Origin: Tribonema minus
Lineage: Eukaryota; Sar; Xanthophyceae; Tribonematales; Tribonemataceae
Assembly (NCBI GenBank): GCA_017506865.1
Contig: JAFCMP010000043.1
Location: 1-64,000, forward strand
Length of the DNA stretch: 64,000 nt
Direction: 5' to 3'
The notes under the pieces were generated by a model that was not told the origin of the DNA, did not search any database, and was given only the letters and a program-made list of their open reading frames with translations. The position numbers and the translations under genes were made by a program. How positions within the stretch are numbered: position 1 is the first letter of the stretch; the number at the start of each line of letters is the position of its first letter. Of the stretch, positions 181 to 63,290 are shown in pieces.

Positions 181-305
181 GTGCTTGCGCACCTGGTGAT
201 CACCGTAACTTGCAAGTGTGACTGCGTCGTCATGCCACAAGATTGAACCGTGACCTGCAAACCTCAACACAGCGATGCTGCCTGCGCATGTGGTGACACT
301 GCGTT
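181..305 (-). repeat. Degraded copies of the 3' edge of carnitine acyltransferase exon 3
   Basis: Two copies, near 185-205 and 281-300, resemble the last bases of exon 3 plus its donor (true donor at 565). The first keeps the ATCA..CAG|GTGCGC pattern. They lie on the intron side of the exon, in the same orientation. The rest of 1-565 is intron without a recognisable coding segment. Confidence 0.5.
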
Positions 306-565
306 GTGTCACGTGTTTCAACGGTCTGTTCTTTGAGAAGCCGTTCCGACAAAGCATAGTAGTTCTTGACAGTGACAGACGTTGAACATGGTTGTCACTT
401 CAGAGTGAGCGACAGCCTGGTATAACACACGCACTTGCTTGAGTGCTGCTGTGGGTGCCAGTGTGCTGTCCGCTCTGACCGTCACTGCTCACGTGTAGAC
501 CAAATGCGTCATGCAAGATTAATTCGTGATCCGCAAACTTCAAGTCTGTGACGCTCCGTGCGTAC

Positions 566-2640
566 CTGGTGCTGATCCTCGGGGCGCGGCGAGTCGGAGA
601 AGTGGTAGAAGTAGCTCACGTTGATGACCACGGGGTCCCGGACCTGCCACGATGGCAACAAGTCACTTGTTACTACAAGTCAAGTCACTTGTTACGAGAC
701 AAGTCACTTGCTACAAGGTGCAACCGGCATGAACTACACCCCCTTGGGCTGCATGCGTGTTTGCAAGCGCGTGACTCAAGCGTCACCAATCACGAGTCAC
801 AAGTCACAAGTCACCCCAAAATACCAGCACACGACCAAAACAAACGCATACTTCAACACTCTAGACTGCAACCTTCACCTGCAGGTAGCCCAGCTGGTTG
901 GTTCCATCACTGCACAAAAATTGAGATAAAGAAGCAGAGATGACCAACATCAATGCATACCTCCAGCAGCTCTAGACCGCCAACTTCAACAAGTTCACCT
1001 GCAGGTACCCCAGCTGGTTCCACCACTGCGCCAGCCAGCTGGTGCCCTCCGCGTGGCTCCGCTGCGCCCGCTCCCGCAGCTGCGCGTGCAGCCTCTCTCC
1101 CACGCCACCTGCACACACACAAGCTTTGTGCATTGAGCGTGGCTTGGCAAAAGTTGGACCGAGCACTTGTGAGCAACACGCTGCCTGCGAAAATAATGAT
1201 CATTCATTTTGGTTATTTCGCCCACGCCGCCTGTACGGACACCGGCCGCAAGTGTGTGTGTGCATTGAGCGTGGCTTGGCGATACTTCAACAGAGCATTT
1301 GTGCATGACACGCTGCCTGCACGGACACGGCTGAGAGCGTTTGGCGCTGTCTAAAAGCTGAGCTCTGATGCAGGGCACGCTCCCGCAGCTGCGCGTGCAG
1401 CCTCTCGCCACGCCACCTGCACGCACACGGGGCTTTGTGCATTGAGTATGGCTCGGGAAAACTTGATCCGAGCACGTTGCCTGCAAAAAAACGATCTGTT
1501 GCTTCATTTTGGTTTTCAAAAATCTGAACGAATCGTTCACCAGGATGCACGGACACGGCTGAGAGCGTCACTGCTTGAGCTGAGCAATGATACATGGCAC
1601 AGCTGCTGCAGCTGCGCGTGCAGCCTCTTGCCCGCGCCACCTGTAAGGACGCGGCTCAGATCGTTGAGCACTGCTTGGCAACACTGAAGCTGAGAACTGC
1701 TACATGGCAGCAACGCTCTGAAATGTGCACAAGCTGAGCACTGATGCATGGCACACACTTTGCTGCGCCCCCCCTTCCTCCAGTGGAGACACTAAGATTG
1801 TCGAGCGCTGCTTGGCGCCACTGACGCGCTCAGCAGTGACGCACGGCATCGCAGCCGCAGCTGCACACGTGCAACTTCTTATCCGTCACGCCTGTGCGGA
1901 CGTGGCTCGGAGCGTTGAGTGTCGACGCTGAGAACTAAGCACTGAGCACTGCTGCCGCAGAGGTGATATGGTCGTGCGAGGCGCGCATGCGCGCAGCGCT
2001 GGCCTTACGTCTGTGACGCGCCTGGTGCTGCATCGTGAAAACTTCAACAAGTGGCTACAGTGGGGGGAGAATGGTGGTGGTCAAATCGTTAAGTTGAAGC
2101 TTATAAAGATGATGCACGTGATGTCACCAGCAGCCGGTTGATCATGGACGTTAGTAGGTGTTGATGAAGCGGCAGGGAACATTCAGGGTGCTGTGGAGAC
2201 ACTAGCTTTTCAGTTCAGATATACCAAGACTCTCACCCGTGTGAGTTACACGAGATTGCGTGCTTTGATCAAGGGTCGCCAGTGCTTGGCACATGCAAGA
2301 CGCTTGCGTATGATACCTCTGGAGGCTCAATGTAAATAGAAAGTAAAGCTTATCAGCCTGAATTCCTGAGGATGCGCACTGCAAGTGCAAGTGCGTGCGC
2401 TCTTTCACAGGCGCGCGTAACATCACCTGGACGTAGGAACTCCGCGACCACAGCCTCAGTCTGCTTGTACTGAGCTTCGCTGACCAGCGCCTTCACAGAT
2501 GCCAGATACTTGGCGCACGTCTCTTGGAGAGGTGCAACTGGCAGTGGTGGCAACGCATCTTGGTGCGCGTAAAGCGGCTTGTTCGCCTCCAGGGCCTTCT
2601 CGCCACGGTAGTCGCCGTTGCTCTCGATGAACTCCCTCAT
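566..2640 (-). CDS. Carnitine O-acyltransferase, N-terminal exons (3'-truncated by window edge)
   Basis: Predicted to exchange acyl groups between CoA and carnitine (choline/carnitine acyltransferase family), normally in mitochondria or peroxisomes. Three exons read on the minus strand: 2640-2427, 1108-999 and 643-566. The first holds the family N-terminal signature LPPLPVAPLQ and a stretch ending FLRPG; the second continues GVGERL and contains WLAQWWNQLGYLQ; the third reads RDPVVINVSYFYHF. Phases agree at both joins (the G of RPG completes the codon that opens exon 2; exon 2 to 3 is phase 0), and all sites are GT/AG. The start ATG at 2640 is chosen because an in-frame TGA lies 15 bases upstream. 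The catalytic His domain is beyond the left edge. Introns carry degraded copies of the exon edges. Family call is strong; carnitine versus choline specificity and cell location are not visible. Confidence 0.88.
876..914 (-). repeat. Copy of the 3' edge of carnitine acyltransferase exon 2
   Basis: About 38 bases match the end of exon 2 (true end 999) including the CTGCAG|GTGAA donor. The copy has a shifted reading frame. It lies about 120 bases downstream of the true donor, inside the intron. The interval 657-717 next to it is a short tandem of an ACAAGTCACTTGTTAC-like unit. Confidence 0.7.
1376..1650 (-). repeat. Copies of the 5' edge of carnitine acyltransferase exon 2
   Basis: Two clear copies, about 1376-1434 and 1601-1650, repeat the acceptor and first ~45 bases of exon 2 (true start 1108): a G/T-rich tract, AG, then GTGGCG..GAGAGGCTGCACGCGCAGC. 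Weaker echoes continue to about 1900, together with repeated text such as GCATTGAGCGTGGCTTGG. All lie in the intron upstream of the real exon in direct orientation. Confidence 0.75.
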
Positions 2641-2839
2641 GACGCGCGAGGATCAGTAAGCGGGGTGTGCAGTGCCGAGGGCCTCAACCCAAATAAAAAA
2701 CTTCAAGCGTTGAAGTGGTGGCTTGAAGTATCGCACAGCGTCCGAGGACCTCAAGAAACAGCAGCACTTTAGGCTCTAGCACAGAGAAACCACCTGGAGT
2801 GCACATAAACCGCACAGAATTAGGGCGCCAGCTGCCACC

Positions 2840-7045: not shown

Positions 7046-10000
7046 TTATGAACCGAAAGCGCCCTTCTGCGGCATGCCGAAAACAAAAGAGGGGCGCTGT
7101 GTGGTGTCTTGGTGGCGCATCGCTTCGGCCGCTGCGGCCTGGTTGCCAAATAGATGGCCACCGACTCTATACTGGTCACTGCCGCTGGTGCTGCGGGCAA
7201 AGCCGCCGCTGCTGCTGCCACGGCCGGCACTCCCGTCACTGCCAAAGTACCCGCTGCTGCCGCTGCCGCTGCCGCTAGTCCAGGCGCCGCTAGCGCTGCT
7301 GCCGCCGCTGCTGCTGCAGCCGCCGCTGCCGCCGCCCGCTTCAGGCGCAAACGACGCCATCCAATGCGAAGGCGGCTGCGGAGGCGGCAGCGGCGCCGGC
7401 GCGGCGAAGCACGCACTCGCCATGTCAAGGAGTGACTCATCATCAAGCTCATCCGCCAGCTGGTTCAGCAGTGCCTGGTCCACTGCCATATCGTCGCCTA
7501 TATCATCGTCGCCGCAGCCGCCGCCGCCGCCGCCGCCGCCCAAGACGCCCGCGGCGGCGAGCCCTGCGTACGCGTCGCCGCGGTCGCCGCCGCTGCCGCA
7601 ACTCATATCGAAGCTCGCACCCGCGACGACATCGCTGCGATTCCACGGCAGTTCAGGAGGCAGGGGCCCCGCGGCTGCGTTGCCGCCGTCAAAGCGGCAG
7701 CTGGGGAATGCAGATTCTGCTCGTGTCGGAACTCGCCATGGCGGCAGTGGCGGCGCCAGCCAAGGCGCCTGCGTGCCAAGGCCGGGCTCCGCGGGTGCTG
7801 CCGCTGTCGCCGCAGCTGCCGCCGCGCCGTCGTGCGGCGCAGTCTGCCACATGTCCTCGTGAGGCCTGGCGCCCCAGGCGCCGACGACGCTGACGGGGCT
7901 GCTGCTGGAGGCAGTCCTGACGGTGCTAGCGCTGCTGCTCGTGCTGCAACTGCTGTAACTGCCGGCGCGCGCCTGCTCCATCGCCCGGACATCCGCTCCC
8001 GGCACCGGACCGACTGCGCAGCGGGCGCCGCTGCCTCCGCCACCGTCGCCGGCGCCGCTGCCACCACTGCCAGTGCCGCCGCAGCCGCCGCTGCCGCCAC
8101 TGCCGCCGCCAACGCCAGCAGCGGCCTCGTCGCATACGTCGTCCGCCTTGTCCTCCGCGGCGGCGGCGGCGGCGAACGCGGGGACGTACTCGGCGGGCAG
8201 GAAGAGCGCGACCGGCGGCGCGCGCGAGCGGTTGATGTACAGGCCCGAGGGCTGGCGCGCGAGGTCGATGCGGATCGGGCCGCGCAGGTGCAGGCGCGTG
8301 TAGCGTGTGAAGACGCGCGCGGCGCCGCTGCGCAGGTTGTCGGCGATGACGCGGTGTGTCGCCGCGCAGCGGAAGTGGCTGCGCAGGGGGGAGGGGGGGG
8401 GGGGGGGGGGGGGGGGGGCGCTTCAGCACTCGCGGACTGCTCGATTGAGCAAGGTTAACGTTTGCGCTGCGTCGCCGCGCAGCGGAAGTGGCTGCGCAAG
8501 GGGGGGCAGAGGGGGGGGGGAGGGGGGTTGCAGCACTCGCGGCCTGCTCGATCGAGTGAGGTTTACTTTCGCCGCGGCTTGCCGCAAGATTAGGTAAGCC
8601 TCAATGCGTGGCGTAGCCGTGCAGTGCAAGTGGCTGCGCAAGGGTGGGGGGAAGGGGAGGGCGGGGGGACACTTCAGCACTTGCGGTCTGCTCGATTGAG
8701 CGAGGTTTGCTGTCGCCGCGGCTTGCAGTAGGGGTTAGGTAAGCTTCAGTGTGTGGTGCATCGGTGGTTCACCTGCGAGCGCACTTGGCGGCCATGACCT
8801 GGCTGAGCAGGCAAATCGGCTGCCGGGGGGGGGGGGGGGGGGGGGGGGGTACAGCAGTTCAGCTGCACAGTGTACAGGGAACAATGCTGCTCGCTCGCGC
8901 AATGTTGTCGAGCGTAGCAGCGGCTCTTGGTGCTCAACGAGATGCAGCGACGTGGCTCAATGACATTAGTTTAGCGGCAGCGCTCGGCAAATTGCTATGT
9001 ACGTCGTGAGCTGAAGGGGTGTGTGGGGGGGGGAGGGGGGGGGGGAGCAGCATGTCGCCATCGGCGGAGAGGCGCGTCACAGCCACGTGTGTATGTTTAC
9101 AAGTTTGTAAGCATGTCGGGATGTGACGCTCCCCGTCATGTGCAGCAGCGCTCATCGCGGCGTAACTGCCTCCAGACTGAAGCCTCTCTGCTTCCAGAGT
9201 CCTACCGTGCCGCTGCAGCAGCCAAACCAGTCCCCTGTGCGATGACCGGACCTCGTGTGCACATGTGGAGCGCTGCCATCGGCGGCAGCAGTGCACATGG
9301 CAGCGCGGGGTGGCCAAGCGTGGCTCTCTGGCTGAATGACGGGCGGCTGCTGCCGCAACGCGCACACATGAGAAGAGCGAAGACTTAGGGTTAGGGTTAG
9401 CCCTAACCCTAACCCTAACCCTAACCCTAAGTCAGGTGTCTCATGCCCTGGGGAGGACGCTGTTGATGACGCTGAGCTCTGTTCGTGAAGGACAAGTCCC
9501 CACAACACAGTGGCGGTTCACGTGGCTGAAAAGTGGCGGTCCACGCGAAGAGCCCGCGCTCCGTCGCGGTGCGTGCGAACACGGCGAGCGTCATCACCTG
9601 CAGCAGCACATGCTGGCCGTGTCCGGCTCAGCATTCGCCAGCAGGTACGAAGCGAGGCAATTTTTGAGCTTGGCGTAGAAAAATGCATACTTGTGTATGC
9701 TGTCAGAAAACGGGTGCAGTGACACTTCTGTTGTGAACCTCCTGAGCGTCATCACCTGCAGCAGCACATGTTGGCCTTGTTGGGCTCGTCCTCCGGCAGC
9801 ACGTACGCTCCAAGCTCGATTATAGCTCAATTAGAACATGAAGTATTTGTGGTGAAACGGCGGGGCGCCACTTCATGCCACCTCTGCCTTGGACCACTCA
9901 ACGTGATAAACATCATTACCTGCAGCAGCACATGTTGGCCTTGTTGGGCTCGTCTTCCAGCAGCACATACGCTATCCTAAACTTGGTCTCAAAAGAAGAA

Positions 10001-13000
10001 TATATACATGAGGCAATTTTCGGGAAACGGGCGCCACTACAAGCCATCTTTGTGAATGATGAGCATCGTTGAGCATCATCACCTGCAGCAGCATATGTTG
10101 GCCTTGTTGGGCTCGTCCTCCGGCAGCAGGTCGTGGCCGCCCGCGAGGCGCAGGCCGTTGTACACGCGCAGCAGCTCGTCGTAGTCAGCGCTCAGCCCCG
10201 CGCTCAGCAGCATCGACGCAATGAAGTGCACGTTGTGCCTGCGCGCGCGGGGGAACGGCGGCAAAGGCACGAAAACGGCGCGGTTTAAGAACTGACAAAC
10301 TGAGGCGAGACAAAGTGCACGTTGTGCCGCCGCGCGCACGGCGCGGGGGGGGGGGCGGGGGGAGAACACGAAAACGGCGCTCTTCAGAGGCTGAGACGAG
10401 ACGAAGTGCGCGTTGTGTCTGCGCAGGGGGGGCGGGGGGGGGGGGGGGGGGGGGGGGAACACTAAGCGGTCGAGGAAAAAAAAGGAAAAAAAGGAGAACC
10501 ACGCCGCCGCCTCAGATAGTTCAATGTGAAGTATTTATTGCATCTGCAACGCACTCAAAGTGACCTTGCCAAATTGCCAGAGCAGCGCAAAGCACCCATG
10601 ACTGGCCACGATGAGGAACAGCCTACCAGAAGGCAAAGATTCATGGAGAGTGTCATGGCTCGTCGTGTGCGCACGTGCATGCCTCTGTCTCGTGCTGCAA
10701 AAACATCATGTGCGTGGCAAATGGTGAGGGGGACCGGGGGGGGGGAGGGGGGGGTAGGTTGTTTTCCCTAGTGCCCTTCAGCGATGATTGTCAGCAAAGG
10801 TCTCAACAGCCCGCCCCCCCCCCCCCCATTGTTTGCTGAGGGCCAGCTATCTGCCCCTCCGCCCAAATTGTGATGTCACCAGCCAGACCTTACATAGCAG
10901 TGCTGCGAAAGCAAAGACGTGTCGATCGCAGATTGTACGTCACGTCTCGGGTGTGTTTCCTCAGGAAATACAGCCAATGCAGCATACATATGGGGTGATC
11001 TGACCGTACGTACGACTCTTTTTCTTCAACTTCAACTTGAAGTTTAAGAACCTGAAACGGCCGTAACGGGATGTAACGGGATGTTACATCATGTTAATCA
11101 TTGTATATGATTCGCCTATGCAAGGGAGCACATACCAGTGCCCTACATAATCAATAAGTCGAAGAAAATAAGCTGTTACGCACCACATACGTTGCTTTTT
11201 AAATTATTGCTGACGGACAACCCGAGACGGAGCGAAGACCGGGTAGATGGAACCAGAGCAAGAGGTTCACACCTCTAGCGCGGCGAAGCGGGGACCAGAC
11301 AAGGCTCCTGACACGCGCTCCGCTGCTACGCTACTGCTCGTAGGTGAGGAAAGGAGAACGCTACGGATAGCTCGCGCTAAACAACCTGGAGCCTTCCATG
11401 TCGCCGCATGGATTGGTTTAAAACCCGCGTCATCACCTTCTACACTACGCGCATTCAAGAGCGCTGTCACTAGCTGCTGAACCTCTGTGTTGGGCTGCCG
11501 GCTGGAGCTGGCCTAACGAACACGTGAGACCTTCCCATACTGAACACCCATGCCTCGAACGCTAAAAGCTTGCACACAAAGTCTTTTGACTGGTGGATAC
11601 GGTGGTACTGTTTGACTCGTGGCCAATTGCTGCAGCAGCGGCGACCACGGTTATTGGTGGAAGGCACTTGCGGCTAACCATCCCTTGTCACCTAGAGCTC
11701 TACGATCTTTTTTTTTATTCGTTTTCATACGTATACTTCGAAGTATTTCAGGTTTGAAGTATGAGGTTTGGTGGACGCACCGATATGGAGGAAAGCGCAG
11801 GATACCGCTACACCGGCACAGCACGCGCTTCACGTGCAGCAGTAGCTGCAAGCAGCCGTCCTGCGTCCGAACGGAGCGGTGCAAGTTGAAGTTGGGACAA
11901 CGCGGGGGAAACGTGAGGTTAGCGCGGGAGTATCTCCGCACTAGGGGTGAAGTTCAAGGCTGTACCATCCACCGCTGCATGCGCACGCAACATCAGACCG
12001 CACACACGCAGTGCGCAGACTGCCATCGCTTAGGGTTAAACCCTAACCCTAACCCTGACGCTCAGCGCGAGCGCCTCGCGTGCCGCGCGCTGTGCCCCCA
12101 GCGAACTCTACACGCAGACCGTTCGAAAAAGTGTTATGATGCACTGAGAGTGCTGCAAGTCAATAGACTTGACCTTGGTGACACGCACGCATAGCGATAC
12201 TTCCAGTAGCGCGCTTCAAAGCGTGACAAAAGGGGGGAGGGGAGACCGCTGAATCACCGTAACCCTAACTTGAACCCTACCATCACCCTGCGCCCGTTGT
12301 CTCGCTGCGCAGTCACTTGAACAGTCGGGCGGGGGGGCATCGACGAGTGTCATCAACAACGCAACGCCACAAGGTTATGGCAACATTCGGGTTTCTGTTT
12401 CAACTTGGACTCTTGCAAAGTTTCTTTGCAGTTCGTCATTCCTGCACCCGTTTCATCTTGAAGCTCTTTTGTAACTTTAGGGTCTGGAATTCAAGCGGGT
12501 TGCTGAATGCGACGCGACTCCCCAACCTCCTCATGCGCGATAAGGGTAACCCTAATCCTAACCCTAACCCTGCCCTGATCCTGACCCTGTTGTCTCGCTG
12601 CGCAGTCACTTGAACAGTAGGTCCGGGGGCATCGACCGATTGTGATCGCTCACAATGCAAATACGTGAGTTGCTGAATGCGGGCAGGGTCAGCGTAATCC
12701 ACCGCAATGCCACAAGTGAGAATTGCTGAATGCGGGTAGGGTTAGGGTTAGGGTTAGGGTGACCCTCTCACCTCGTCGTGCGCGAGTAGGCGCAAGAACA
12801 TCGCCTCGTACGCTATGATCAGGTGCATGAAGCTCATGTTCTCAAAGAAGGCGGCGCCCAGGCTAGTCATGAGGCGGTCCACGATATTGCTGAGTCGTGC
12901 CCCCGCTTCCCGCACGGCCTTCAGGTCCTCGGTCGTGGCGGCGGCGTTCGCCATGTGCATGAGCTGCGGGGCGTGGACGTAGCGACAGTCGAGCACGCGT

Positions 13001-16000
13001 CAGCACGCAAGTGAAACGTGGTCATCATCACTTCGCACACGGTCTTCAGGTCTTCGGTCGCGGCGGCGGCGATCGCCATGTGCATGAGCTGCGGGGCGCG
13101 GATGCATTGACACGCGACGTTGAGACCCGCACGCGTCAGCATGCGGTGATACGTGTCAACATGAACCTCGTAAACTTGTGGTCAGCTGTGTTGTATTCCG
13201 TATGCAAGTGGGTGTGAGGCATGGATTTGCCCCATGTAGTGACGTGGTGTTGGCGACGAAATGTGATGCGTGCCGCGCAACACTCTCTGGCGTTCGCCAT
13301 GTGCATGAGCGGACGTGGCAGCGATTGAGGTCGACCCACGCGCATCAGCATGTGTGAAGTAGTTGTGGGCATGGGCTTGAACCGCGGAGGAGAGGTTAGG
13401 GTTAGGCACGGCACTCCGCGTCTCGCTGCGCTTGCAACTAGGGTTTGAGGTCAGGGTTGGGGTCGGAGTGAGGGACCCATCGAGGGTTTGCAGGGACGAG
13501 GGGCGTGTCGTCAGCAGTGTACCGAGGTGATACGTGTCGACGTGAGCCTCGCATACTCTACTTGTAGTCAGTTGTGTTGTACTCAGTGTGCAGCTGGCGT
13601 GAAGCATCAAATTGCTTTTGTGGTTTAAGCCAACGTAGTGACGTGGTGTTGGCGCTGAAAGGTGATGCGTGCCGCGCAGCGCTCTCTGCGTTCGCTGCGC
13701 TCGTAACTAGGGTTTGGTACTAGGGTTAGTTAGGGCGGCGGCCCACGGAGACAAGAGCGGACACCGCAGGATGACCCTAACCCTAACCCTCACCCTAACC
13801 CTGAACCCAAGATAACCTTTGCACCGATGTGAAGTCTACGGGGGGCAATGCATGGCATGTGCTGAACACGCAACCTAGATTCGTCCAATGAAGCAGTGTC
13901 CCCGCAGTCTGTGGGGGGCGCCAACTGCCCTGTGTTCCAACTTGTGCCCCGAAGCGCGCTAACAGCGCACCTGCGCGAGGCGGTGGCCGCAGCTCATGAC
14001 GACGGCGGCGAGGCGCGTGCGGCCACGTGCCAGCCTGGTCACCATGCCTCCATGGCGTCTCGTTAACTGTATACATGTATACGCATACATGAACAAATGT
14101 ATGCATTCATGCACTCGCAAACGGGACAGTCATGCCACGCTCACCTGCGCCAGGCGATGACCACAGCTCATGACGACGACGGCGAGGCGCGTGCGGCCGC
14201 GCGCTGAGACGATGATCACATGTCACCAGACTATATTGTTGTGTTCATTGGCGTGTACATTGACGTGTGTATATATGTGCGTCTATACTTTCAGTGCGAC
14301 TGCTCATATGTATATACACGCACCTGAGCAAGGCGGTGGATGACGACGGCGGCGAGGCGTGTGCGGCCGCGCGTTAACACGATCACCACGCCGCAAGGAA
14401 GTAGACTGTGTACCTCTACGTGTCCTTTGAAGCATATGCTTCAAGAAGTATATGAAGTGTAAGCTTCAAATTACTTCAGTGAAAAACTTGAGCATGTCCT
14501 CGAGCGCGCTGACAGCACACCTGAGTGAGGCGGTGGTCGCAGCTCATGACGACGGCGGCGAGGCGCGTGCGACCGCGCATCGAGATGGTAACCACACATC
14601 ATCAAATTAGACATGTACTTGAACTTTCAGAAGCATACTTCAAAGTACAAAATTCGAAAACTGCCACATTATATACTCAACACTGTAACAGCACCTGGGC
14701 CAGGCGGTGGTCGCAGCTCATGACGACGGCGGCGAGGCGCGTGCGGCCGCGTGTTGAGACGGTGACGAGCTCGTCCACGCCGCACGCGTCCGGCTCGCCC
14801 AGCTTGTCGAGCGCAGACGCGACGATGACGCGCCGCGGCAACTGCTTCGCCTGTGCGGCAGTCAGTACAGTACAGCAGTCCACTCATCATTCGTGATTGA
14901 TTCGATCAGGAGCACATACTTCAGCTGCGCGGCAATTGGTGCAGCAGTCGACTCATCATTTCTGCTTTATTTGGTCGAATTACAAAGTGTCGAGGGCTGA
15001 CGTGACGATGATTTGATTAAATATAGAAAGTGTTGAGGGCTGACGCGACGATGACATGACGATGATGCGCCGCGGCAGCTGCGCCGCGGCAGCTGCTTCG
15101 CCTGCGAGGCAATCGGTGCAGCAGTCGTTGACTCATTACTTTCTGATTGACTTGATCAAGTGTAGCAGGTGTTGAGGGCTGACGCGTATAGACATGACAG
15201 CTTGATATGGTGAGCCATCGGTGGCGAATTGCCGGGCGCTGACGGTGGCGGCTTGACGAGCGCGGACGCAATGGTCCATTGCGGCAGCTGCTTCGCGTGC
15301 GCGGCAACCAGCACCGAGTGAGGGCAGGGGGTGATGTGCAGAGTCCATTGTTGCAGGGAACGAGGTGTCAAAGCTACGCCATTTGTTGCCACACACGCCG
15401 GCCCAGTTGAAGGTGAATACAGCCGCGGCCGCCGCAATCAGGCAGGCGCTCACACCCGCCGGCATCGAGCGCGCCTGTTGCCCGCAAGCGCGCGGGCTGC
15501 AGATGGCTCAGGTCGACACTCAGTATTGCTCAGCAAGCGAGTGACTCACTTACTCACCTACTTACCTACTTGCCTCGCCGCGCACCAGAGAAAGCAGCGC
15601 ACTGCACCAGTGCTGCACTGGCGCCTGGCGCGCTCCGCCACCCCTAACCCTAACCCTAAGAAGCGCATCATCGCTCCATCACCGCTCAGCAAGCGACGCA
15701 CACAGCAGCCGCTGGTCCATCACAAGACGCCACTGCCGAGTCTCCCACGCAACACACTGGCGAATGACAGAAGCCGAGCCCCACCTGACGAAAATCCCTG
15801 ACCCTAGGCCTCAGGCTTGCCCTAGCCTTGAGCAGCAGTGCTCAGTGCTGGAGTGCAGCGCTAAGCTCTGACCACTCAGAGATGACAAAAACATAGGATA
15901 CCGGGCCATGACGAAACATGACACCTGCACGTATGTCAACCATGTCTGTTTGCAGCCTGATGATAGAGTACTCTGCAGCACTGCCTGCTCCACTCGGGCC

Positions 16001-19000
16001 ATGACACAACACCTGCACGCACGTCACCCATGTCTGTTTGCAGCCCAATGATGGAGTATTCTGCAGATGCAAGAAGCACCTAACGAAAGTGACTGACCCT
16101 AAGCCTCAGGCTTGCCCTAGGGTTACCCTGGTCTAGGCCTCAGGCTTGCCCTAGGAGGGTTAGGGTTAGCCTTGAGCAGCAGTGCTCAGACCTGGAGCGC
16201 AGCTCACCTGCTCCACCTCGGGCGCATTCGGGAGCCCCTGCATCGGCGGCGAGTACACCGTGAACATGGTCCCGGGGCGGCCCTCCCCCACGTCGCGGCA
16301 GCGCTCTAGCTGGAACCTGCACGCGTGCGGGCGGCAGCAGCGCGTGTCAAGTGCTGCACATCAGCCCAAATGATGTGTTGATCGGTGTACAATGATTCAC
16401 GCGCTTCATGGAACAGCGCTGTTGAGACTGGGGATGTCAGTGTCGAAGCAACGTCGCGCGCGCTCTCGCACAGTGTCAGCGCTCAGTTGCGAGGGCTGCG
16501 CGCAGATGCGCAGTGGCAGCGCGCTGATGCTGCCCCTCTTGCCGCTGCCCCTCGTGTTGACGTGTCGTCTGACCGTCGCTGACGGAGTACGACACCTGCA
16601 TGCCCTGTTTGCATGTGCCTATGCATACCTACCTACATAAGTCGCGGCAGCACTCCAGTTGGAACCTGCACGCGCGCGGGCGTCGGCGGCGCAGGTCAAG
16701 AGCTGCATATCGTCCAAATGCTGTGTTGATTCATTCCCCCATTGATTCACGCGGTTCACGTGACAGCGCTGTTGAGACTGGGGGTGTCGGACGGGTGTCA
16801 GCCTAACCCTAACCCTAACCCTAATTTCAACCCTAACCTAACCCTAACCTAAGCCGCGAAGTGCCGTCGCACGCGATCTCACATATGGTGGTCAGCACTC
16901 GAGGGCGGAGCCTGCGCGCAGATGCACGGCGGCAGCGCGCCGACGCCGTCCCTCATTCATCTTCAAGTGTCATTTGATGTGTCATCGTGGATTCCCCCGC
17001 GTCGCATCCTGGGGGTCGAAATCGGCACGCAGGTGTTGACAGTCCCTCATTTGGAATGTGTTCCGCCGCGTGGCGTCCTGAGGTGGACGTGTGCACGCAG
17101 CATGCACCGGCGATGTCGCCTGTTGAGCATCATCGTTGCGTCTGGCCCCCCCGGGGGCGATGGACAGCGGAGCCAGCTTAACGCGTCATCGTGCGTGAGG
17201 CAGCAACTACTCTTGAGGTCATAATCTGCAAGCTTAGACAACAGTATAAGTAGAGGAATCAAGAGTCGCCGGACTTCTCTGTGTGTACCGGCTTAGGGTT
17301 AGGGTAAGGCCCTAACCCTAACCCTAAGTCATACAAACAGCCGCTTGGTCTGCACTGCTGCGCCCCTGCGGGCGAATGGCATGACGGCAGCATGCTGATT
17401 ATTGGTGCCCATTACTGTAACTGTCAGACACTGTCAGCAGCCCCCTCTCTGTGGAAAGCGCGCTGTTGTTGACGATGCGGCCCCAGTGCTGAACTGCCAG
17501 TAAATGTCAGTCAGCCCCCTCACTGTAGGAAGCACGCAGATGATGATGATGCGAGTCATGGGTGGCTGTAACCGCCAGTAACTGTCAGTCGGCCCCTTTG
17601 GGAAGCGCGCTGATTGATGACCATGTCACATAACCGTAACTGTCAGTAACTGTCAGTTCACTCACCGCGGGAAGCACGCGCTGAGGCGGCGCCGCACGTT
17701 ACCGTAACTGTCAGTAACTGTAAGTTCCCTCACCGCGGTGCCGTAACTGTCAGTAACTGCGAGTTCACTCACCGCGGGAAGCACGTGCTGAGGCGGCGCC
17801 GCACGTTACCGTAACTGTCAGTAACTGTAGGTTCACTCACCGCGGTACCGTAACTGTCAGTAACTGTCAGCTCACTCACCGCGGGAAGCACGCGCTGAGG
17901 CGGCGCCGCACGTTGCTGCAACTTTCAGTAACTGTAAGTTCACCCACCGCGGTACTGTAACTGTCAGTAACTGTAAGTTCACTCACCGCGGAAAGCACGC
18001 GCTCAGGCGGCGCCGCACGGCCGCGCGCGTCTGCCGATCGCCGGCAAGGTACGAGTCGGTGAAGGCCTTCATGACGCGCAGCGTCTCTAGCATCATCCAG
18101 GCATCTTCGTCTATGACCGGCACCTCCGCTGGCCCCCCCAACCCCCTCCCCTCCCCCTCCCCCTTCCCCTGTGCCTCCGCCTCTGCCTCGCGTTGAAGTT
18201 GAAGTATTGACCACGCCACATTCGCCGCGTGGTGGTAGAAGACGTAGAACCTGACGAGCCGTCATAAAAGGGTTAGGGTTAGGGTTAGATTAGAGTGAGG
18301 ATAGGGCAACAGATGTATCGTCAGCTGTCCGCTGCACAGCGGGCGACAGCGCTATGCGCCAGAGCGATGATTCCTGTCAGAAGGGCAGCACTGTGCATCA
18401 TGCGAGACAGGCGTTGCTGGTGCGCCCTCGCGCAGGGTATGTACCTATTCAATGGGGGTATGCTCGCCTTGCCGCTGAGCAGTGCTGCAGCCACAAACGG
18501 TGTCACCAGCCTGCATGGCACACCCACATACTGCCGTCCTGCGGTCACGAGCCAGAGAGATGCAATTCTGTTGGAGGCGAAGAGCACGTTTGACCCTTGC
18601 ACGTCACGGCAGACGCAGCGACCGACAAGTGCTGCGCGCACACCCCGCTGATGGAGGCTTCACGCCCGCGACCGCAGCGAGTGCAAGCGGCCATTGAGGC
18701 AGCCGCGCCGCCGCTGTACATAACCCTAACCCTAACCCTAATTCACATACATACGCGCCCTAACAACGACGCACGCAGCGTACGCGGCCCGCTGACAGAG
18801 GCTTCACGACAACACTGACGCCAGTGCGAGCGGCAATCGCGGCAGCCGCGCCACCGCTGAACATGCCTACCCTAGCACGACGACGCACGTAGCGTGCGCC
18901 AGAGGTCCGGCTCCGTGCAGCATGCAGCAAGAAGCGTTCCAGAAGCGCGGTCTGAACGGGGCACGCTCACAAGCAGTCACATCCTGCGAGGACTACTTGG

Positions 19001-33530: not shown

Positions 33531-33542
33531 CTGCACGACGAG

Positions 33543-33783: not shown

Positions 33784-33825
33784 ACTAGTTGCCGATGGCG
33801 GCGCGCAGGTCTGCGCGACGGGGGT
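33784..33825 (-). repeat. Copy of the 5' edge of the Ala-rich gene exon
   Basis: GCGCAG followed by ACCTGCGCGCCGCCATCGGC repeats the acceptor and first bases of the exon starting at 33530; it diverges afterwards. This supports the acceptor choice. Confidence 0.8.
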
Positions 33826-41064: not shown

Positions 41065-41102
<38 letters not shown>

Positions 41103-47428: not shown

Positions 47429-47996
47429 AGACCAACACCGATTGTATGTCAGCGGAGACCTGCATGTGATGCAGCATCGTGTCACTGTGTGCTCTGTTGC
47501 GACTGCTGTGAGCATGCCAACATCAACGCATGCGGTAGCCAACGATGCTGCCGCATGGTCATATGTAGCATGATCACATAGCAGTGTTTGATTCGAAAGG
47601 ATGGACGTACGCGCAGCCATGCGGCGTATGAACAGGCGAGAAGTGCCTTTGGCCTGATTTGATCCAGTTTAATATGCTAGAGGTGTGTAGCGCACTATTG
47701 ACTGCGCAGGCTGCAGCTGGCCCGGTTCGGTGCCATATGCAAGCATCTTGCAGCGCAGAGCGGTGGATTGGCACGTGGCACAAAAAAGATACTTCGAAGT
47801 ATTTGCAAATTGCAAAGCGTACTTACTGTAGCAAGGCTCTTCGACGTGCCGGCGTGAGGCACAACAACTTGAGGATGCCCTCTCGCGCTGTGCACCACGT
47901 TGAAACGAAAACGACGAGTGCTGGGTTTCATGTCGCAACTTCAACTTCAACTGTTCGGTGTTGAAGTTGTGTGAACTCGATGCAAGAAGGCAGCCA
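47429..47996. other. Intergenic stretch between metaxin-like and sulfurtransferase genes
   Basis: 568 bases, with no supported gene. Direct TTCAACTTCAACTG and GTTGAAGTTG phrases lie just before the next start. Confidence 0.5.
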
Positions 47997-50900: not shown

Positions 50901-53647
50901 ACCGCAATGACGCTAGCCTGTCCTCTGATGTCCAGGGGGCTGGGCCAAGTGGGTTGCCGAAGACAGGCCCGTCACAGATGAAGTTGCGTGCCCCCTGAAG
51001 CTGCTGGGAGAGTGGGGGATCGAGCCGGAGGCCGAGCAGCCGTGGCTGCGGCTGACCGCCGAACAGCTGCAAGCGCGCCTGCTGGAGCGTCCCCAGTTGC
51101 ACTTGATAGACGCCCGCGCTGCGGAGCAGTACACAGGGGAGGTCAGGTGTGTACTTTATGTGCAGATGGTGCGTTTTTCATCGTCTCATGGCTTAGATGC
51201 TGGAATAACTGGTCAGTTGCATACATGTGCTGTCACAAGCTGTTGCGGGGGATGAGTGCCCCCTGAGCTAGATGGCGCGCCTCCTGGAGCGTCGCCAGTT
51301 GCAGTTGAGAGACGCCCGAGCCGCGGAGCAGTACACAGGGGAAGTCAGGTGTGCATTGTATGTACACATGGGTGTCTCATTGTCTCATGGCTCAGACACT
51401 GGAACAGCTGCTTGGTTGTATACATGTGCTGTCACAAGGGGCGGGAGGGCTAGCATTATGGTTAGTGTTAGGATTTGGGTTGAAGTTGCAGCGGGAAGAC
51501 GATGCCTCCATACACCACAGCGGGTGCGACTTTGCCATATGTTCAGACTGTGCAGCAGCCTCCTGAGCCTGGCCCACCATCAATACTGGGAGGTTTAAAC
51601 CCTTTTGTCACTTCAATGCCAGGCTGTCCTTGCAAGTGCTGAAAGAGCAAACCACAAGCCAACGCACTTAGCGGTAGGCGGCTCTCTTGAGCCCGTTGCT
51701 TGGAGCAGCTGACACTCTGCTGTCTGCGCACCGTGCCCGCCGTCACTTTCTGCAAGCCTGTTGCCGCTTGAGATGCATTGGAATTGCTGAGCAGCCTACA
51801 TGCACAATATGCGACGCGAAGCACAATTCACGAAGCATGTAATCTACTTGATGCTGATTGCGTCGAAGTCATTACAATCATGAGCATGATGTGCGGCAGT
51901 CAAGCCCGCACCAGCTTCCACAGCACTAGACCACTTTACAGGATACCCTGTATATGAACACGATTAGTCGCGCATTGCACTCCTGAAAGTGCTTGACGTT
52001 TCCCGGCATTACCAGGCAGCCTATGTACTTCAGCCGCAGCGCCGACGCGTGCTTCTTGCCTATTACGCATGCCCACTGTGGTGACAGACGAGCGCAAAGG
52101 GGAGGGCACATTCCCGGCGCACTCAACACCCCCTACAAGGCTTTCCTGCAAGGCGGCCAGGGGCCGTACAAGACATTGAAGCCTCTGGCGGGGCTGCGAG
52201 AGGTGAATCATGTACTTACCCACTGCTCGCTATTTGACAAGCCTGGCAGCATCACTCATGTTTGGGTGCTGCGGAAAGTCAGGAAATGGCATGCTCCTCC
52301 CCAACCGCATGCCGTTCTCTGTGAATCAATGCAGCACGTAGCAGTCTTGTGTAGCCGACAGACTCTGGCGGGACTGCAAGGGTTAGTGTTAGGGTTAGGG
52401 TTAGGTGAATCACCAAGTCACTGCTCCCTGTCCGGCTGGGGTACGCAAGTGTGTGTTTAGCAGAACATCAGGAAGTGGCAGGCTCCTCCTCAGCAGCGTA
52501 GCATTCGTTTTCATTGCAGTACGTGGCAGTCCATGTCCCGTTGTCATCGTGGCGATCATGTGAAATGTGTGGGCGGGGTCGAGATGTGGCAACCGCTGCA
52601 CACATACGCACACCGGCCGATCCGCAGTGGTGAAGCTTGCCAACGCTGTGGTTTCAAGTAGCGCAAATAATCGCCAGGCAGCACTGTTTCCTTTGAAGAT
52701 CATACAAGTAGGTGTCGCCTCCATGATGCGCAGCTGTGTCTAAGAAGAAACTGACGTATTCAGATACTCATGAGTCATGATGCGCTTGACAAGTAGTGGC
52801 CACAGCACACAGAAAACGCCTTGCAATCCACAAGCTTCTTCCTGCGACAAACTGCTCAGCATGTGCTCCAGATGCACAAAGCGTGCTTGAGATGGCAGTT
52901 GAGTTAGTGTCGTGGTAGCAAATGATGTGCGCTGCTGCATCGCCCTATTGTGCGACACATCATTATGGCCAAATACTGGATAGCGATTGATCGACATGGC
53001 ATCATGGCCCGTCACAGTGATCATCTGGGTAGCACGCCATGCTTCTGAACAGATGTTTTCTCGATGTGTCGTCTGGGGTGTTGAAACAATGTCAGTGAAA
53101 CAGAGTCTGGGGCATGCTCAGGATTGAGGTCATTGCAAACATCATCAGGGCACCAGGTACCTGCTAGCCTAGCTTATTGGCTGCGAGCCCTTCAAGTACA
53201 TATTGTCCGTATGGTGTGCCATTGCACAATCTGCCTCCCTTCAGCAGATTTCCAAATGTGTTCACCATGCAGACACTTCCAATCAATATATACCTACATG
53301 GCATCGTACATGCCTTAGAGACTGCTCCTGGGGGTGACCTCAGCCCCTGAGAATGCGCACCTTCCTCAGTGCTCTACGTGCTTCTGATACAGCTGCCAAC
53401 ATCTGTTCCTGTGCTGCTTTCTGGCATCCCTCAGGTATTGCAGTCGGCAGGCGTTGACACGTCTCAGCCGGCGGCAGCATACTGCAATGGTGGCGTAGCA
53501 TCAACAGTCGCCATGTTTGCCCTGTACCAACTGGGCAACGCTCGCGTTACCAACTATGACGGGAGCTGGAATGAGTGGGGCAACAGAGAAGACTTGCCTG
53601 CAGAGACCACTAGTCTGGAGCAACACCAAGCAACAAACGCAAAATAG
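47997..53647 (+). CDS. Two-domain thiosulfate/3-mercaptopyruvate sulfurtransferase (rhodanese), 6 exons, 364 residues
   Basis: Transfers sulfane sulfur to cyanide or thiols through a catalytic Cys. Exons 47997-48221, 48680-48808, 50117-50318, 50936-51146, 52088-52202 and 53435-53647 (TAG), phases 0,0,1,2,0, all consistent. The N-terminal domain has DIRGAVKKGQ, LHIPNAVFADWTK, VVAYDNGNMLFATRLWW and ISVLDGGW. The C-terminal domain has LHLIDARAAEQYTGEVR, GGHIPGALNTPY and the active loop AAYCNGGVAST with Cys at about residue 311. The N-terminus (MLLLSFCLLVSQAQQAQAW) is a signal peptide, so the protein is secreted or, with the following Arg/Ser-rich stretch, plastid-bound; which is not decided. The exon 4 donor is placed at GTCAG|GTGTGT because only this keeps phase with exon 5. 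Introns carry exon-edge copies at four exons. Confidence 0.92.
48880..48945 (+). repeat. Copy of the 3' edge of sulfurtransferase exon 2, with telomere units
   Basis: AACGCCGTCTTTGTGGATTG..CCAAG|GTAAAC repeats the end of exon 2 (48786-48814) about 98 bases downstream. CCCTAACCC-type units follow within 6 bases of the copied donor. Confidence 0.9.
49430..50035 (+). repeat. Copies of the 5' edge of sulfurtransferase exon 3
   Basis: Copies start near 49432 (weak), 49537, 49665, 49812 and 49980; the real exon starts at 50117. Each has a C-rich tract, CACCAG and GACATTGCAGGCCGCGAC. The 49812 copy is long: about 145 exon bases with an open frame (QLSDREAFVEAMEARGI) before it leaves the exon; the 49665 copy covers about 65. 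Left of these, 49040-49430 is a looser repeat of CTCCACTCTTCAACTTCAAC phrases. Confidence 0.92.
50474..50535 (+). repeat. Copy of the 3' edge of sulfurtransferase exon 3
   Basis: GGCGCTACGGTTATTCCGAG..GTGCTCGATG|GTGAGC repeats 50274-50335, about 205 bases downstream, with several substitutions. Confidence 0.9.
51250..51360 (+). repeat. Copy of the 3' edge of sulfurtransferase exon 4
   Basis: About 95 bases (CGCGCCTCCTGGAGCGTCGC to GGGGAAGTCAG|GTGTG) repeat 51067-51150; downstream intron text (CATGTGCTGTCACAAG) is duplicated as well. The unit spacing is about 203 bases. Confidence 0.92.
52340..52410 (+). repeat. Short copy of the 3' edge of sulfurtransferase exon 5 joined to telomere units
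   Basis: CTCTGGCGGGACTGCAAG repeats the exon 5 end (52183-52202). Instead of the donor GTGAAT it runs straight into GGTTAGTGTTAGGGTTAGGG, then returns to GTGAATCA, the true intron start. Telomere sequence has been placed exactly at the copied splice point. Confidence 0.85.
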
Positions 53648-60604: not shown

Positions 60605-62795
60605 ATGGCGTCAGCGACCAGTCATCTCGTGGGTGCGAGCGCCAGCCTAGTTGGCGCGGCTTTAGTAGCAGCGAGCGGCATCACCTTGATACGGCGCCCC
60701 GTGCACGCAAAGTCAGGCGCAGCAGCCAATCGCATCCCAGCACAGATCCACTGCCGTGATGGCACCGTCGTCACTCCATACTTGCCACCCTCGAGAGAGG
60801 CCCAGCTGGCCCGCCTGAAGAGCGAGCACTTCGATGTGCTGGTGATCGGGGGAGGGTGCGTGGGATCCGGCGTGGCCCTGGATGCCGCCATGCGGGGGAT
60901 GAACACCGCCATGATCGAAGCCAACGACTTCGGCGCAGGCACCAGCGGCCGCTCCACCAAGCTCATCCACGGGGGCATCCGCTACCTAGAGACAGCCTTC
61001 AAGAAGCTGGACCTCGAGTCCCTGCACCTGGTCAGGGAGGCGCTCGAGGAGCGCGCGTACATGCTGCGCGCGGCGCCATACATGAACAAGCCGCTGCCGA
61101 TCATGATCCCCATCTACACGTGGTGGGAGCTCCCCTACATGTGGGCGGGGGCCAAGGTCTACGACCTGGTGGCGGGCTCGCGGCGCGCCGTCCCCCCCTC
61201 CCACTACATGTCCGCCGAGGAGGCGCTCTTCAACTTCCCCATGCTGCGCGGCGCGGGCCTCAAGGGCGCCGTCATCTACTACGACGGCCAGATGAACGAC
61301 ACGCGCATGTCGCTCACGATCGCGCTCACGGCGACGCAATCGGGCGCCGCCGTCGCCTCGCGCGTGCGCGCCGTCTCTCTGATCAAGGACGCGCGCTCCG
61401 GCCGCGTCGCCGGCGCGCGCCTGCGCGACGAGACTACCGGCGAGGAGTGGAGCGTCACCGCCTCCGCCGTCGTCAACGCGACGGGCTGCTTCGCGGACGC
61501 GGTGCGCCACCTGGACGATCCCGCGCTGCAGCCCCTCATAACCCCCGCTGCGGGGGTGCACGTCATGCTGCCGGACCACTTCTCGCCGAGCAAGATGGGG
61601 CTCATCGTGCCGCGCACGGCGGACGGGCGCGTGCTGTTCTTCCTGCCGTGGGAGGGCGCGACCATCGCGGGCACCACGGACAGCGAGTCGGAGCTCACGA
61701 TGCTGCCGCGGCCGACGCAGGCAGAGGTGGACTTCATCATACAGGTGACGTGTCTCTGTTGTTGCTGTTGTTGTCTCTGTTGGTGTTGTGGCTGAGCTCA
61801 ACGAGCTGTGCGCATGAGGGGTATGGCATGGCAGTGCTCAGCAGCAGGCGGAGGTGGCCTTCATCATACAGGTGACATATGTAACTGGCTTATTGGTCTG
61901 AGTTGAGCGAGTGAGTGATATGATAGGGCAGTGTTCAGCAGCAGGCAGATGCGGGCTTTGTCATACAGGTGACACGAGGGTGACGCTGGCTTGCGTGTCT
62001 GACGGCGGAGCGAGCGAGTGTTGTGATATGGCAGTGTTCAGCAGCAGGCGGAGGTAGACATCATCATCGAGGTGGCTTGTTGGTTTTGTGGCCGAGCTGA
62101 GCGAGCGAGTGGTATGCCGTGGCAGTGTTCAACAGCAGGCGGATTTGGGCTTGATTGTGCAGGTGGCGCGTATGTGACACTGGCTGGTGTGGCTGAGTTG
62201 AGCGAGTGAGTGATGTGGGGTGGCAGCATTCAGCAGCAGACGGAGGTGGGGCTTTGGTATAGAGGCGACGTGTGACTCCACACAAGTGTGGAAGTGAGGT
62301 CAGTCAGCGATTGATAGTATGGTGGCAGTGTTCAGCAGCAGGCAAAGGCTAACATCATCACGATTGCCATCAGCTCTGCCGCGCTCGGACAGCGATGACA
62401 CTCAAAAGAATGTGTAGCACAGGGAGTTGTTGCTCGTAGACCACTTGACGTTGAGCGCCCGGGCACTGTCGTGCACATTCACCAATGACCGTGCACATTC
62501 ACCAGCGGTGAACCTCGCGCTGGTGCAAGAGCAACGGGTCACAACAGCGGATAGCGTGGTCTGTACATTGCATTCGCCGGCCATGCTTGTTTCTGCACGT
62601 CACACTGCAACCCTTTGAAAACCATATCCATCTTGTTGCTGATCTCTATCGCGACAGGAGAGCAATCGGTTCTTGAGCTGCCGCGTCAGGCGCGACGATG
62701 CGATTGCGGCGTGGAGCGGAATACGGCCGCTGGTGCGGGACCCGACAAAGATGGGGGAGGGGACAAAGGCGCTGTCCAGAAGCCATGTCGTTGAG
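60605..62795 (+). CDS. FAD-dependent glycerol-3-phosphate dehydrogenase (mitochondrial), first two exons; 3' part outside window
   Basis: Oxidises glycerol-3-phosphate to dihydroxyacetone phosphate and passes electrons to quinone on the inner mitochondrial membrane. Exon 1 is 60605-61744 (380 codons, phase 0), exon 2 62658-62795 (46 codons). The N-terminal ~35 residues form a hydrophobic, Arg-containing presequence. FAD loop VIGGGCVGSG is at about residues 80-89; family signature GTSGRSTKLIHGGIRYLE at about 115-132; PRTADGRVLFFLPWEG and GTTDSE follow. Exon 2 continues AAWSGIRPLVRDPT and SRSHVVE, the expected next segments. The GGKWTTYR segment that should come next is not in 62796-64000, so the third exon is beyond the right edge. 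Both donors are followed by runs of exon-edge copies. Confidence 0.93.
61845..62370 (+). repeat. Six tandem copies of the 3' edge of glycerol-3-phosphate dehydrogenase exon 1
   Basis: Units near 61847, 61941, 62041, 62132, 62233 and 62333 repeat CAGGCGGAGGT..TTCATCATACAG|GTGAC plus the intron start (GCTGAG..GAGCGAGTG..TGGCAGTGTTCAGCAG). Spacing is 90-100 bases. Copies nearest the exon are closest to it; the last has lost the donor. True exon end is 61744. Confidence 0.92.
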
Positions 62796-62859
62796 GTAAG
62801 TGCTTGCAGTACCGTGCTGAGCAGTGCTGCGAGCTCAAGGTGTTGTCTGAAGTTGTAGA

Positions 62860-63290
62860 TGCAAGAGCAGATGCGGGATCCGTCAGAGATGGGGGAGGGG
62901 ACGAAGGCGCTGTCTAGGAGCCATGTCGTTAAAGGTAAGTGCTTGCAGTAGCGCGTCGAGCAGTGCTGCGAGTCGAGTGTGTTTGATTTGCAAGCACGTG
63001 GTGGCACGAAAGCTGTGGGGGTGACTCACCCTGGCCAAGTGGCATTTGTGGCATTTGATGCGCGCATGCGGCAACGAGAGGACAAAGTCGTTGAGGTAAG
63101 CGCTTGCAGTAGCGTGATGAGCAGTGCTGCGAGCCGAGTGCGTTCGTCTGGTGAACATGTAGGCGTAGCAGCAAGCACGTGGTGGCACGAAAGCATATGG
63201 GGGAGGCACCCTGGTCAAGTGGCATAAGATGCGCGCATGCGGCAACGAGGGGACGAAAGCGTTGGTCAGGAGGCATGTCGCTGAGGTGCG
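62860..63290 (+). repeat. Three tandem copies of the 3' edge of glycerol-3-phosphate dehydrogenase exon 2
   Basis: Copies at about 62873-62945, 63068-63115 and 63236-63290 repeat GATGGGGGAGGGGAC..AGCCATGTCGTTGAG|GTAAGTGCTTGCAGTA. Spacing ~140-185 bases. The first is almost complete over 60 bases, with a changed exon end (TTAAAG|GTAAGT). Confidence 0.92.

What the first reader, a model, noticed from the sequence alone, without database searches (positions are those of the whole stretch)
181..63290. Systematic duplication of exon edges into the adjacent introns of every long-intron gene
In all seven genes with long introns, pieces spanning a splice junction are copied in direct orientation into the neighbouring intron. 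The polarity held in every case I found: 5' edges (tract + AG + exon start) only upstream, 3' edges (exon end + GT + intron start) only downstream. At least 15 exons are affected, with 1-6 copies each, unit spacing usually 90-205 bases. The intronless ankyrin genes and the 59-base intron show none. Copies nearest the exon are generally the best preserved, as expected if units are added at the exon boundary and then decay. This is intron growth by repeated local tandem duplication across splice sites. AGGT-type tandem duplication as a source of new introns is known in other eukaryotes; a genome-wide habit of reduplicating real junctions, linked to telomere sequence, is not something I can name from the literature.
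Basis: partly seen in the sequence, partly recalled or inferred. Interest (0 to 1): 0.92.

Follow-up and report, generated by a model that had tools for sequence, protein, structure and literature searches.

The report
Alga introns hold decayed exon-edge copies
In this yellow-green alga, short stretches of DNA keep being copied close by, and where a copied stretch straddles the border between a coding piece and the spacer beside it, a decaying copy of the coding edge is left in the spacer; most of this is what random copying would give, but a hint that such borders are hit more often than chance makes it worth testing.

Summary
The window lies in the Tribonema minus genome (spliced DapB matches its annotated 281-aa protein at 100%). 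In window plus 20 sampled 10-kb regions, 64 junction-touching copies of exon ends (36 edges, 30 exons) lie on the expected side, 1 on the wrong side; in 11 conserved genes with HMM-placed exons, 44 right, 0 wrong. Inverted copies: 1 of 111 and 0 of 116 edges. No copy covers a whole exon; frame-breaking gaps and mismatches at all codon positions mark decaying relics. Two arrays tested match nothing else in the genome except telomere-type repeats, so not transposons. Local direct repeats fill about 13% of the sample, inside and outside introns. Simulated random duplication plus coding constraint reproduces the polarity. It does not reproduce the excess at exon edges (blind-set ratio 1.63, bootstrap 1.10-3.20; uniform simulations 0.55-0.93): a mild junction preference remains possible. 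'Every long-intron gene' is too strong (9 of 11 genes; 11 of 93 edges in blind conserved genes); the telomere link is weak. New variant of a known kind.

The parts
37386..37601 (+). DapB exon 2 (real), 3' edge duplicated
   Evidence: spliced model 100% identical to T. minus protein P0001
37693..37832 (+). copy of the 3' end of DapB exon 2, followed by GT and intron start, with a 2-bp gap that breaks the frame (repeat pair 37460-37691 / 37693-37919)
38975..39202 (+). DapB exon 3 (real), 5' edge duplicated twice upstream
38645..38702 (+). upstream copy 1 of the DapB exon 3 start, preceded by AG
38811..38868 (+). upstream copy 2 of the DapB exon 3 start, preceded by AG; exon part identical to copy 1, intron part 98% like the real junction
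60796..61744 (+). FAD-glycerol-3-phosphate dehydrogenase exon (start ab initio), 3' edge reduplicated
   Evidence: Pfam DAO, PDB 3da1 across the junction
61844..62080 (+). three copies of that exon end with GT above the shuffle level (61844-61876, 61941-61973, 62044-62080); weaker ones seen by eye to about 62360
62658..62795 (+). next exon of the same gene (missed by the ab initio model), 3' edge reduplicated
62872..63287 (+). copies of that exon end: 62880-62945, 63087-63106, 63247-63287; 62872-62930 and 63247-63285 with the other probe
999..1108 (-). carnitine acyltransferase exon; 5' edge copied at 1375-1416 and 1602-1640 (upstream), 3' edge at 879-913 (downstream)
   Evidence: Pfam PF00755 on the frame 975-1199
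7180..8378 (-). predicted exon; 28 bp of its 5' edge copied 113 bp upstream, about 8464-8491
10083..10238 (-). predicted exon; 3' edge copied at 9920-9965, 9756-9804, 9598-9646
12772..12963 (-). predicted exon; 5' edge copied at 13031-13088 and 13289-13309
14695..14850 (-). predicted exon; 3' edge copied at 14528-14592, 14145-14215, 13971-14029; 5' edge at 15058-15082
17987..18180 (-). predicted exon; 3' edge and intron start in a 107-bp array 17633-18019 (three copies)
19303..20035 (-). predicted exon; 3' edge copied at 19166-19203
29517..29712 (-). predicted exon; 3' edge copied at 29356-29453, 5' edge at 29815-29867; the 161-bp unit 29296-29611 also holds telomere-type repeats
33292..33530 (-). 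predicted exon; 5' edge copied at 33787-33810
43326..43508 (+). GST C-terminal-domain exon; 5' edge copied at 43125-43209 and 42966-43037, 3' edge at 43645-43700 and 43878-43909
   Evidence: Pfam PF17171
50117..50265 (+). rhodanese-like exon (Pfam score below its cut-off); 5' edge copied at 49830-49959 and 49682-49744
50936..51146 (+). predicted exon; 3' edge copied at 51275-51348

Best explanation
The T. minus nuclear genome undergoes frequent local direct duplication of short segments (98 of 158 nearest lags are 75-224 bp, median 166), seen in introns and in other non-exon sequence. When a unit straddles a splice junction, only the arrangement that keeps the original junction in use is viable, so the extra exon edge with its GT or AG ends up in the intron and then decays as non-coding DNA; further rounds, some in shifted registers, build introns with several such relics. 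Shown: the copies, their side, orientation, spacing and decay, and for two arrays that they occur nowhere else in the genome. Inferred: the physical process (replication slippage, flap re-ligation or staggered-break repair; the unit size is near the nucleosome and Okazaki-fragment scale, which is recalled and only suggestive), and the absence of function.
For: Local direct repeats 174 HSPs / 25,772 bp versus inverted 28 HSPs / 4,947 bp in the 200-kb sample, 0 in one Markov shuffle of each region. Side ratio 64:1 and 44:0 for junction-touching copies; with 50-bp probes 34:4 and 23:0, as in random-duplication simulations. Breakpoints in exons vary (21-142 bp of exon included, median 51), and 0 of 64 plus 0 of 44 copies cover over 90% of an exon. 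Decay: mismatches by codon position 76/74/184 and 57/50/115; gaps none/multiple of 3/frame-breaking 48/2/14 and 30/1/13. Two arrays match nothing else in the genome except a telomere-type piece. Pure-intron segments are copied too: 102 of 621 segments more than 200 bp from a junction. The DapB exon 3 copies look like two successive duplications in shifted register.
Against: Edge probes are copied more often than uniform simulations allow (1.63 in the blind sets against 0.55-0.93). The third-position share of mismatches, 55% (window alone 59%), is slightly above one half (p = 0.035 and 0.017), a little more than a wholly free copy should give. Splice dinucleotides are kept in 54 of 64 copies, slightly more than an intron-part identity of 0.86 would give for two bases. 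Many alignments are shorter than their lag: strict head-to-tail structure is seen directly in only 6 of 40 pairs with identity 90% or more and lag under 600.
Confidence: 0.75

Rival explanations
1. Duplication is targeted to, or preferentially kept at, splice junctions (for example through nucleosome positioning at exons, co-transcriptional breaks, or a use of spare splice sites).
For: Exon-edge probes copied 20 of 130 versus 34 of 360 deep-intron segments in the blind sets (ratio 1.63, bootstrap 1.10-3.20; all loci 41 of 174 versus 102 of 621, 1.43, 1.04-2.00); simulations with a 2- and 4-fold preference give 1.07 and 1.40 and 1.19 for 4-fold. In window plus sample the copying of intron segments falls towards the intron centre (37 of 158 at 100-200 bp, 39 of 238 at 200-400, 17 of 148 beyond), whereas uniform simulations rise or stay level.
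Against: Neither blind set settles it alone (sample 2.65, interval 0.00-3.59; conserved genes 1.17, 0.69-9.71). In the conserved genes there is no fall towards the centre (32 of 177, 34 of 180, 9 of 54), and intron next to the junction is not enriched (18 of 172 versus 17 of 165). Exon breakpoints are not fixed relative to the junction. The simulation ignores mutation-rate differences and insertions, and its ratio used 200-400 bp where the observed one used all beyond 200 bp.
Confidence: 0.2
2. The copies are functional: alternative or decoy exons, or spare splice sites under selection.
For: GT kept in 34 of 37 and AG in 20 of 27 copies; the DapB exon 2 copy differs from the exon mainly at third codon positions (0/2/8); third-position share overall slightly above one half.
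Against: Third-position share is only 55% and 52%, with many frame-breaking gaps. Exon parts are not clearly better kept than matched halves of pure-intron duplicates: the neighbouring half scored 26 or more in 30 of 67 exon-anchored and 30 of 72 pure-intron copies. The annotated DapB protein skips the copies.
Confidence: 0.04
3. Introner-like or other transposable elements built the repeats.
For: Introners are known to create many similar introns (PMC9860276, seen as a search listing).
Against: A 561-bp intron array matches only itself in 158 Mb; a 2,301-bp array matches only itself apart from 16 hits to one telomere-type stretch. Only these two arrays were tested.
Confidence: 0.01
4. Assembly artefact or collapsed haplotypes.
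For: Raw reads were not available to me.
Against: Copies are mostly 65-95% identical (4 of 158 pairs at 95% or more), carry indels, and sit in nested arrays.
Confidence: 0.01

Closest known systems
[quoted passage not shown] Gao and Lynch 2009 and Hellsten 2011 are cited inside PMC3443670, passages seen)
   Same: Local tandem duplication inside genes that involves splice signals.
   Different: That model makes a new intron from exon sequence; here pre-existing junctions are copied into pre-existing introns, and 0 of 100 introns show the intron-start = downstream-exon-start signature.
Potato RdRp tandem duplication across an intron-exon boundary (PMC4974935, passages seen)
   Same: A unit crossing an intron-exon boundary, plus a second 83-bp tandem duplication inside an intron.
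   Different: A single gene, where the copy became a new exon and intron; here many copies that look unused.
Internal direct repeats of new Daphnia introns ascribed to staggered double-strand breaks (PMC4202315, passages and one section seen)
   Same: Recurrent direct duplications lengthening introns; the end of an exon can be repeated.
   Different: There the exon-intron repeats are 4-12 bp and enriched in new introns (61.1% versus 16.2% of established ones); here exon parts are 21-142 bp. I did not date the introns here.

Membership tests
AGGT-type tandem-duplication intron gain | Intron start resembles the start of the downstream exon, or intron end resembles the end of the upstream exon | tested here: not met
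   0 of 100 introns at score 30 or more; very old cases would have decayed beyond this test
Introner elements | Similar sequence in many unrelated introns | tested here: not met
   two arrays match only themselves, apart from a telomere-type stretch; other arrays not tested
Local tandem (micro-) duplication | Direct, not inverted, copies at short distance | tested here: met
   174 versus 28 HSPs in 200 kb
Local tandem (micro-) duplication | Head-to-tail contiguity of units | tested here: inconclusive
   clear in some (both DapB arrays, 17633-18019) but only 6 of 40 pairs with identity 90% or more are contiguous
Staggered-break repair (Daphnia type) | Breakpoints and scars of staggered double-strand breaks | not tested
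   no polymorphism data; breakpoints are blurred by divergence
Mutually exclusive or alternative exons | Copies spliced into mRNA | not testable with these tools
   no RNA-seq here; sequence decay speaks against it

The most novel reading that the evidence does not exclude
In T. minus, splice junctions themselves are preferred substrates of a nucleosome-sized duplication process, so that introns grow outward from exon edges and keep a layered record of past exon ends.
Probability: 0.2. Interest if true: 0.78.

Novelty: new variant of a known kind. Interest (0 to 1): 0.52.

Why it matters
Introns are commonly thought to lengthen mainly by transposons and small indels (recalled). Here is an alga in which about a fifth of predicted intron sequence still lies in recognisable local direct repeats, and in which oriented, decaying relics of exon edges record past duplications. 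That would make the rate, size and placement of short duplications measurable from one genome, and the question 'are splice junctions mutational hotspots?' directly testable.

Tried and rejected
First I read the similar copying of intron segments next to and far from junctions as proof against any junction preference; forward simulations showed that uniform duplication should give fewer edge copies than intron copies, so I withdrew that. I suspected that exon parts of copies were unusually well kept (DapB); the global aligner gives 0.75 identity to unrelated 50-mers and is uninformative, and pure-intron controls showed a similar contrast, so I put it down to ascertainment. Strong coding constraint on copies (DapB third positions) did not hold over all copies. 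Transposon origin was rejected for the two arrays tested. AGGT-type origin was rejected for 100 introns. HMM tables of PF00118, PF00225 and PF00171: 12 same-strand pairs with overlapping profile ranges, 0 inverted; 11 lie on the expected side, of which six match the same exon edge within 2 profile positions and the other five (offset 16-53) are probably neighbouring exons; the single 'wrong' pair is copy against copy. The HSP70 table was read by eye and showed no partial copies. Rows dropped: low-complexity probes (5' edges 23 of 77, 3' edges 14 of 71, exon middles 20 of 67). A first run with too strict a complexity filter was discarded, but its list of 87 exons was kept. One search was a script that failed on output and was rerun. 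Window copies number 31 and 29: the latter adds the exon 62658-62795 (2 copies) and loses 7180-8378 and 17987-18180 (4 copies) at the complexity limit.

Limits: 264 kb plus 69.8 kb of gene loci out of 158 Mb. Exon models in the 264 kb are ab initio (my own codon and splice model) except where homology is named; the model also called some copies exons (removed) and missed at least one real exon (62658-62795). Three of the 11 gene loci (L030, L031, L034) were chosen knowing that they hold a copy and are kept out of the 'blind' counts. L009 and L010 lie next to the window on the same contig. Papers: PMC4202315, passages and section 33; PMC3443670, PMC4974935 and PMC12477816, passages; all others search listings or recalled. 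Searches naming Tribonema and searches on the phenomenon listed no report of it; I saw listings only, and the library is open-access only. One search was a search on a possible mechanism, listing only.
Full report
Where it is. The window is contig C43, bases 1-64000, of a 158.2-Mb, 554-contig eukaryotic assembly. A spliced model of the window's dihydrodipicolinate reductase gene (exons ending 36259, 37386-37601, from 38975) matches a 281-residue Tribonema minus protein at 100% identity over 80% of my query; that protein lies on a 422,760-base contig, and C43 has exactly that length. The organism is therefore T. minus, a yellow-green alga. Genes recognised by Pfam: carnitine acyltransferase (minus), an FNIP-repeat gene (plus), a CCT-motif protein (minus), DapB (plus), a glutathione-S-transferase-like gene (plus), a rhodanese-like gene (plus, below the Pfam cut-off), an ankyrin gene (55684-56940; a second frame at 58140-59453 aligns to it at 71%), and FAD-dependent glycerol-3-phosphate dehydrogenase (plus).

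The observation. In DapB the last 140 bp or so of exon 2, the GT and about 90 bp of intron are repeated directly downstream at 37693-37919; the first 58 bp of exon 3 with the preceding AG and tract are repeated twice upstream with a period of 166. In the glycerol-3-phosphate dehydrogenase gene two successive exon ends are repeated three times each downstream above the shuffle level; the join of these two exons is supported by an alignment to PDB 3da1 that runs across it. A small ab initio exon model recovered the DapB junctions exactly; 87 of its 133 exons in 264 kb remained after dropping scores under 16 and copies. Of 54 tested 5' edges 15 have a direct copy upstream and 1 downstream; of 57 tested 3' edges 19 have one downstream and 3 upstream; 1 inverted match among all 111 edges; exon middles 4 direct and 1 inverted of 47. 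Some wrong-side cases are short exons in which the 50-bp probe of one edge overlaps the copied part of the other. Restricted to copies that reach the junction: 64 on the expected side at 36 edges of 30 exons, 1 on the wrong side.

An independent set. HMM searches of the whole genome for TCP1/Cpn60 and HSP70 placed exons in conserved genes; 11 loci (5 TCP1/Cpn60, 6 HSP70) were fetched. Of 116 edges, 23 have a right-side copy, 0 wrong-side, 0 inverted; without the three loci already known to hold a copy, 11 of 93. Nine of the 11 genes have at least one, two HSP70 genes none. Iterative counting gives 44 right-side copies and 0 wrong-side. So the habit is spread over the genome but uneven between genes; 'every long-intron gene' overstates it.

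What the copies are. None of the 64 or of the 44 covers more than 90% of an exon. Mismatches fall at codon positions 1/2/3 as 76/74/184 and 57/50/115, i.e. 55% and 52% at third positions. If the exon keeps its amino acids and the copy drifts freely I expect about one half or a little less (my own estimate); the first set lies slightly above (p = 0.035 against one half; window alone 59%, p = 0.017). Gaps break the frame in 14 of 64 and 13 of 44, and are multiples of three in 2 and 1. Splice dinucleotides persist in 54 of 64. I read them as relics without coding constraint. An apparent better preservation of exon parts than of intron parts was matched by pure-intron duplicates probed in the same way (neighbouring half scoring 26 or more: 30 of 67 exon-anchored, 30 of 72 pure-intron).

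What makes them. In the 200-kb sample, local direct repeats (within 2.5 kb) occupy 25,772 bp against 4,947 bp of inverted ones; none appear in one Markov shuffle per region. In window plus sample they cover 20% of predicted intron, 14% of other non-exon sequence (which includes genes my model missed) and 9% of predicted exon sequence. The nearest lag has its mode at 125-149 bp and a median of 166 bp (158 lags). With the TRF settings printed for Ectocarpus (PMC12477816, passages), tandem repeats cover 7.2% of the sample and 8.4% of the window, against the 3.35% reported there for Ectocarpus, though that figure gives transposons precedence and is not strictly comparable. A 561-bp array matches only itself in the genome and a 2,301-bp array only itself apart from one telomere-type stretch. 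Hence, for these, the source is local duplication, not a dispersed element. The DapB exon 3 copies suggest an order of events: copies 1 and 2 share an identical exon part, while the intron part of copy 2 is 98% like the real junction and that of copy 1 only 79%, as if a first duplication aged and a second one then copied a unit in a different register. This reconstruction is inference.

Polarity. A unit crossing the exon end can be tolerated only if the first junction stays in use, and one crossing the exon start only if the last one does; either way the copy lies in the intron. Forward simulation of uniform duplication with substitution, indels, deletions and exon constraint gives right:wrong counts of 17:3, 32:4 and 58:5 and from 24:1 to 44:2 in nine variants, with the same 50-bp probes for which I observe 34:4 and 23:0. 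The most striking part of the finding is thus expected once local duplication is frequent.

Is the junction special? In the uniform simulations exon-edge probes are copied less often than probes 200-400 bp inside the intron: ratio 0.55-0.84 in nine variants and 0.65, 0.72 and 0.93 in the three runs. A 2- and 4-fold junction preference gives 1.07 and 1.40, and 4-fold gave 1.19. Observed, edges against all intron beyond 200 bp: window 12 of 25 versus 41 of 187; sample 9 of 39 versus 17 of 195 (2.65, bootstrap 0.00-3.59); blind conserved genes 11 of 91 versus 17 of 165 (1.17, 0.69-9.71); blind sets together 20 of 130 versus 34 of 360 (1.63, 1.10-3.20); all loci 41 of 174 versus 102 of 621 (1.43, 1.04-2.00). 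In window plus sample the copying of intron segments falls towards the intron centre, in the conserved genes it does not. The pooled intervals lie above the uniform simulations, but neither blind set settles it alone, the intron next to the junction is not enriched in the conserved genes, and the model leaves out rate heterogeneity and insertions. I regard a mild junction preference as possible, not shown.

Telomere sequence. TTAGGG-type motifs are frequent in predicted introns (1.76 per kb, against 0.79 in other non-exon sequence, 0.06 in exons and about 0.45 expected from base composition). 22 of 52 clusters lie within 50 bp of a repeat-unit end against 23.5% of random points. There is no clear strand rule (57 TTAGGG-sense, 35 CCCTAA-sense in introns). 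The random points were not matched for introns, so the link is weak.

Relation to what is known. [quoted passage not shown] The T. minus introns are not of the AGGT type as far as can still be seen: none of 100 introns shows that signature. What differs is scale: recurrent copies with 21-142 bp of exon, at many exons. Searches naming Tribonema and on the phenomenon listed no report of it. I file it as a new variant of a known kind.

Noticed in passing
whole genome: 11,474 exact (TTAGGG)3 sites (overlapping count, both strands) in 158 Mb; in the 264 kb studied, predicted introns hold the six-base motif about four times more often than base composition predicts.
   Followed up: partly
window 57003-57237: A 125-bp direct pair, 92% identical, downstream of the first ankyrin gene and apparently intergenic: local duplication is not confined to introns.
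   Followed up: no
L013:6212-7215: A sampled region with a 132-bp-period array over 90% identical (871-bp alignment); the region also has 15 inverted matches, more than any other sample.
   Followed up: no
G000 C179:221650-223642 and C90:846742-848762: Two HSP70-family loci whose first matches have identical scores: a large duplication or an uncollapsed haplotype.
   Followed up: no
G000 C521:151125-151286 and C521:187317-187478: The same stretch of the aldehyde-dehydrogenase profile, each with one TGA inside, on opposite strands 36 kb apart: perhaps an inverted segmental duplication.
   Followed up: no
window 55684-56940 and 58140-59453: Two neighbouring long ankyrin frames, 71% identical over 1.1 kb: a tandem gene pair.
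   Followed up: no
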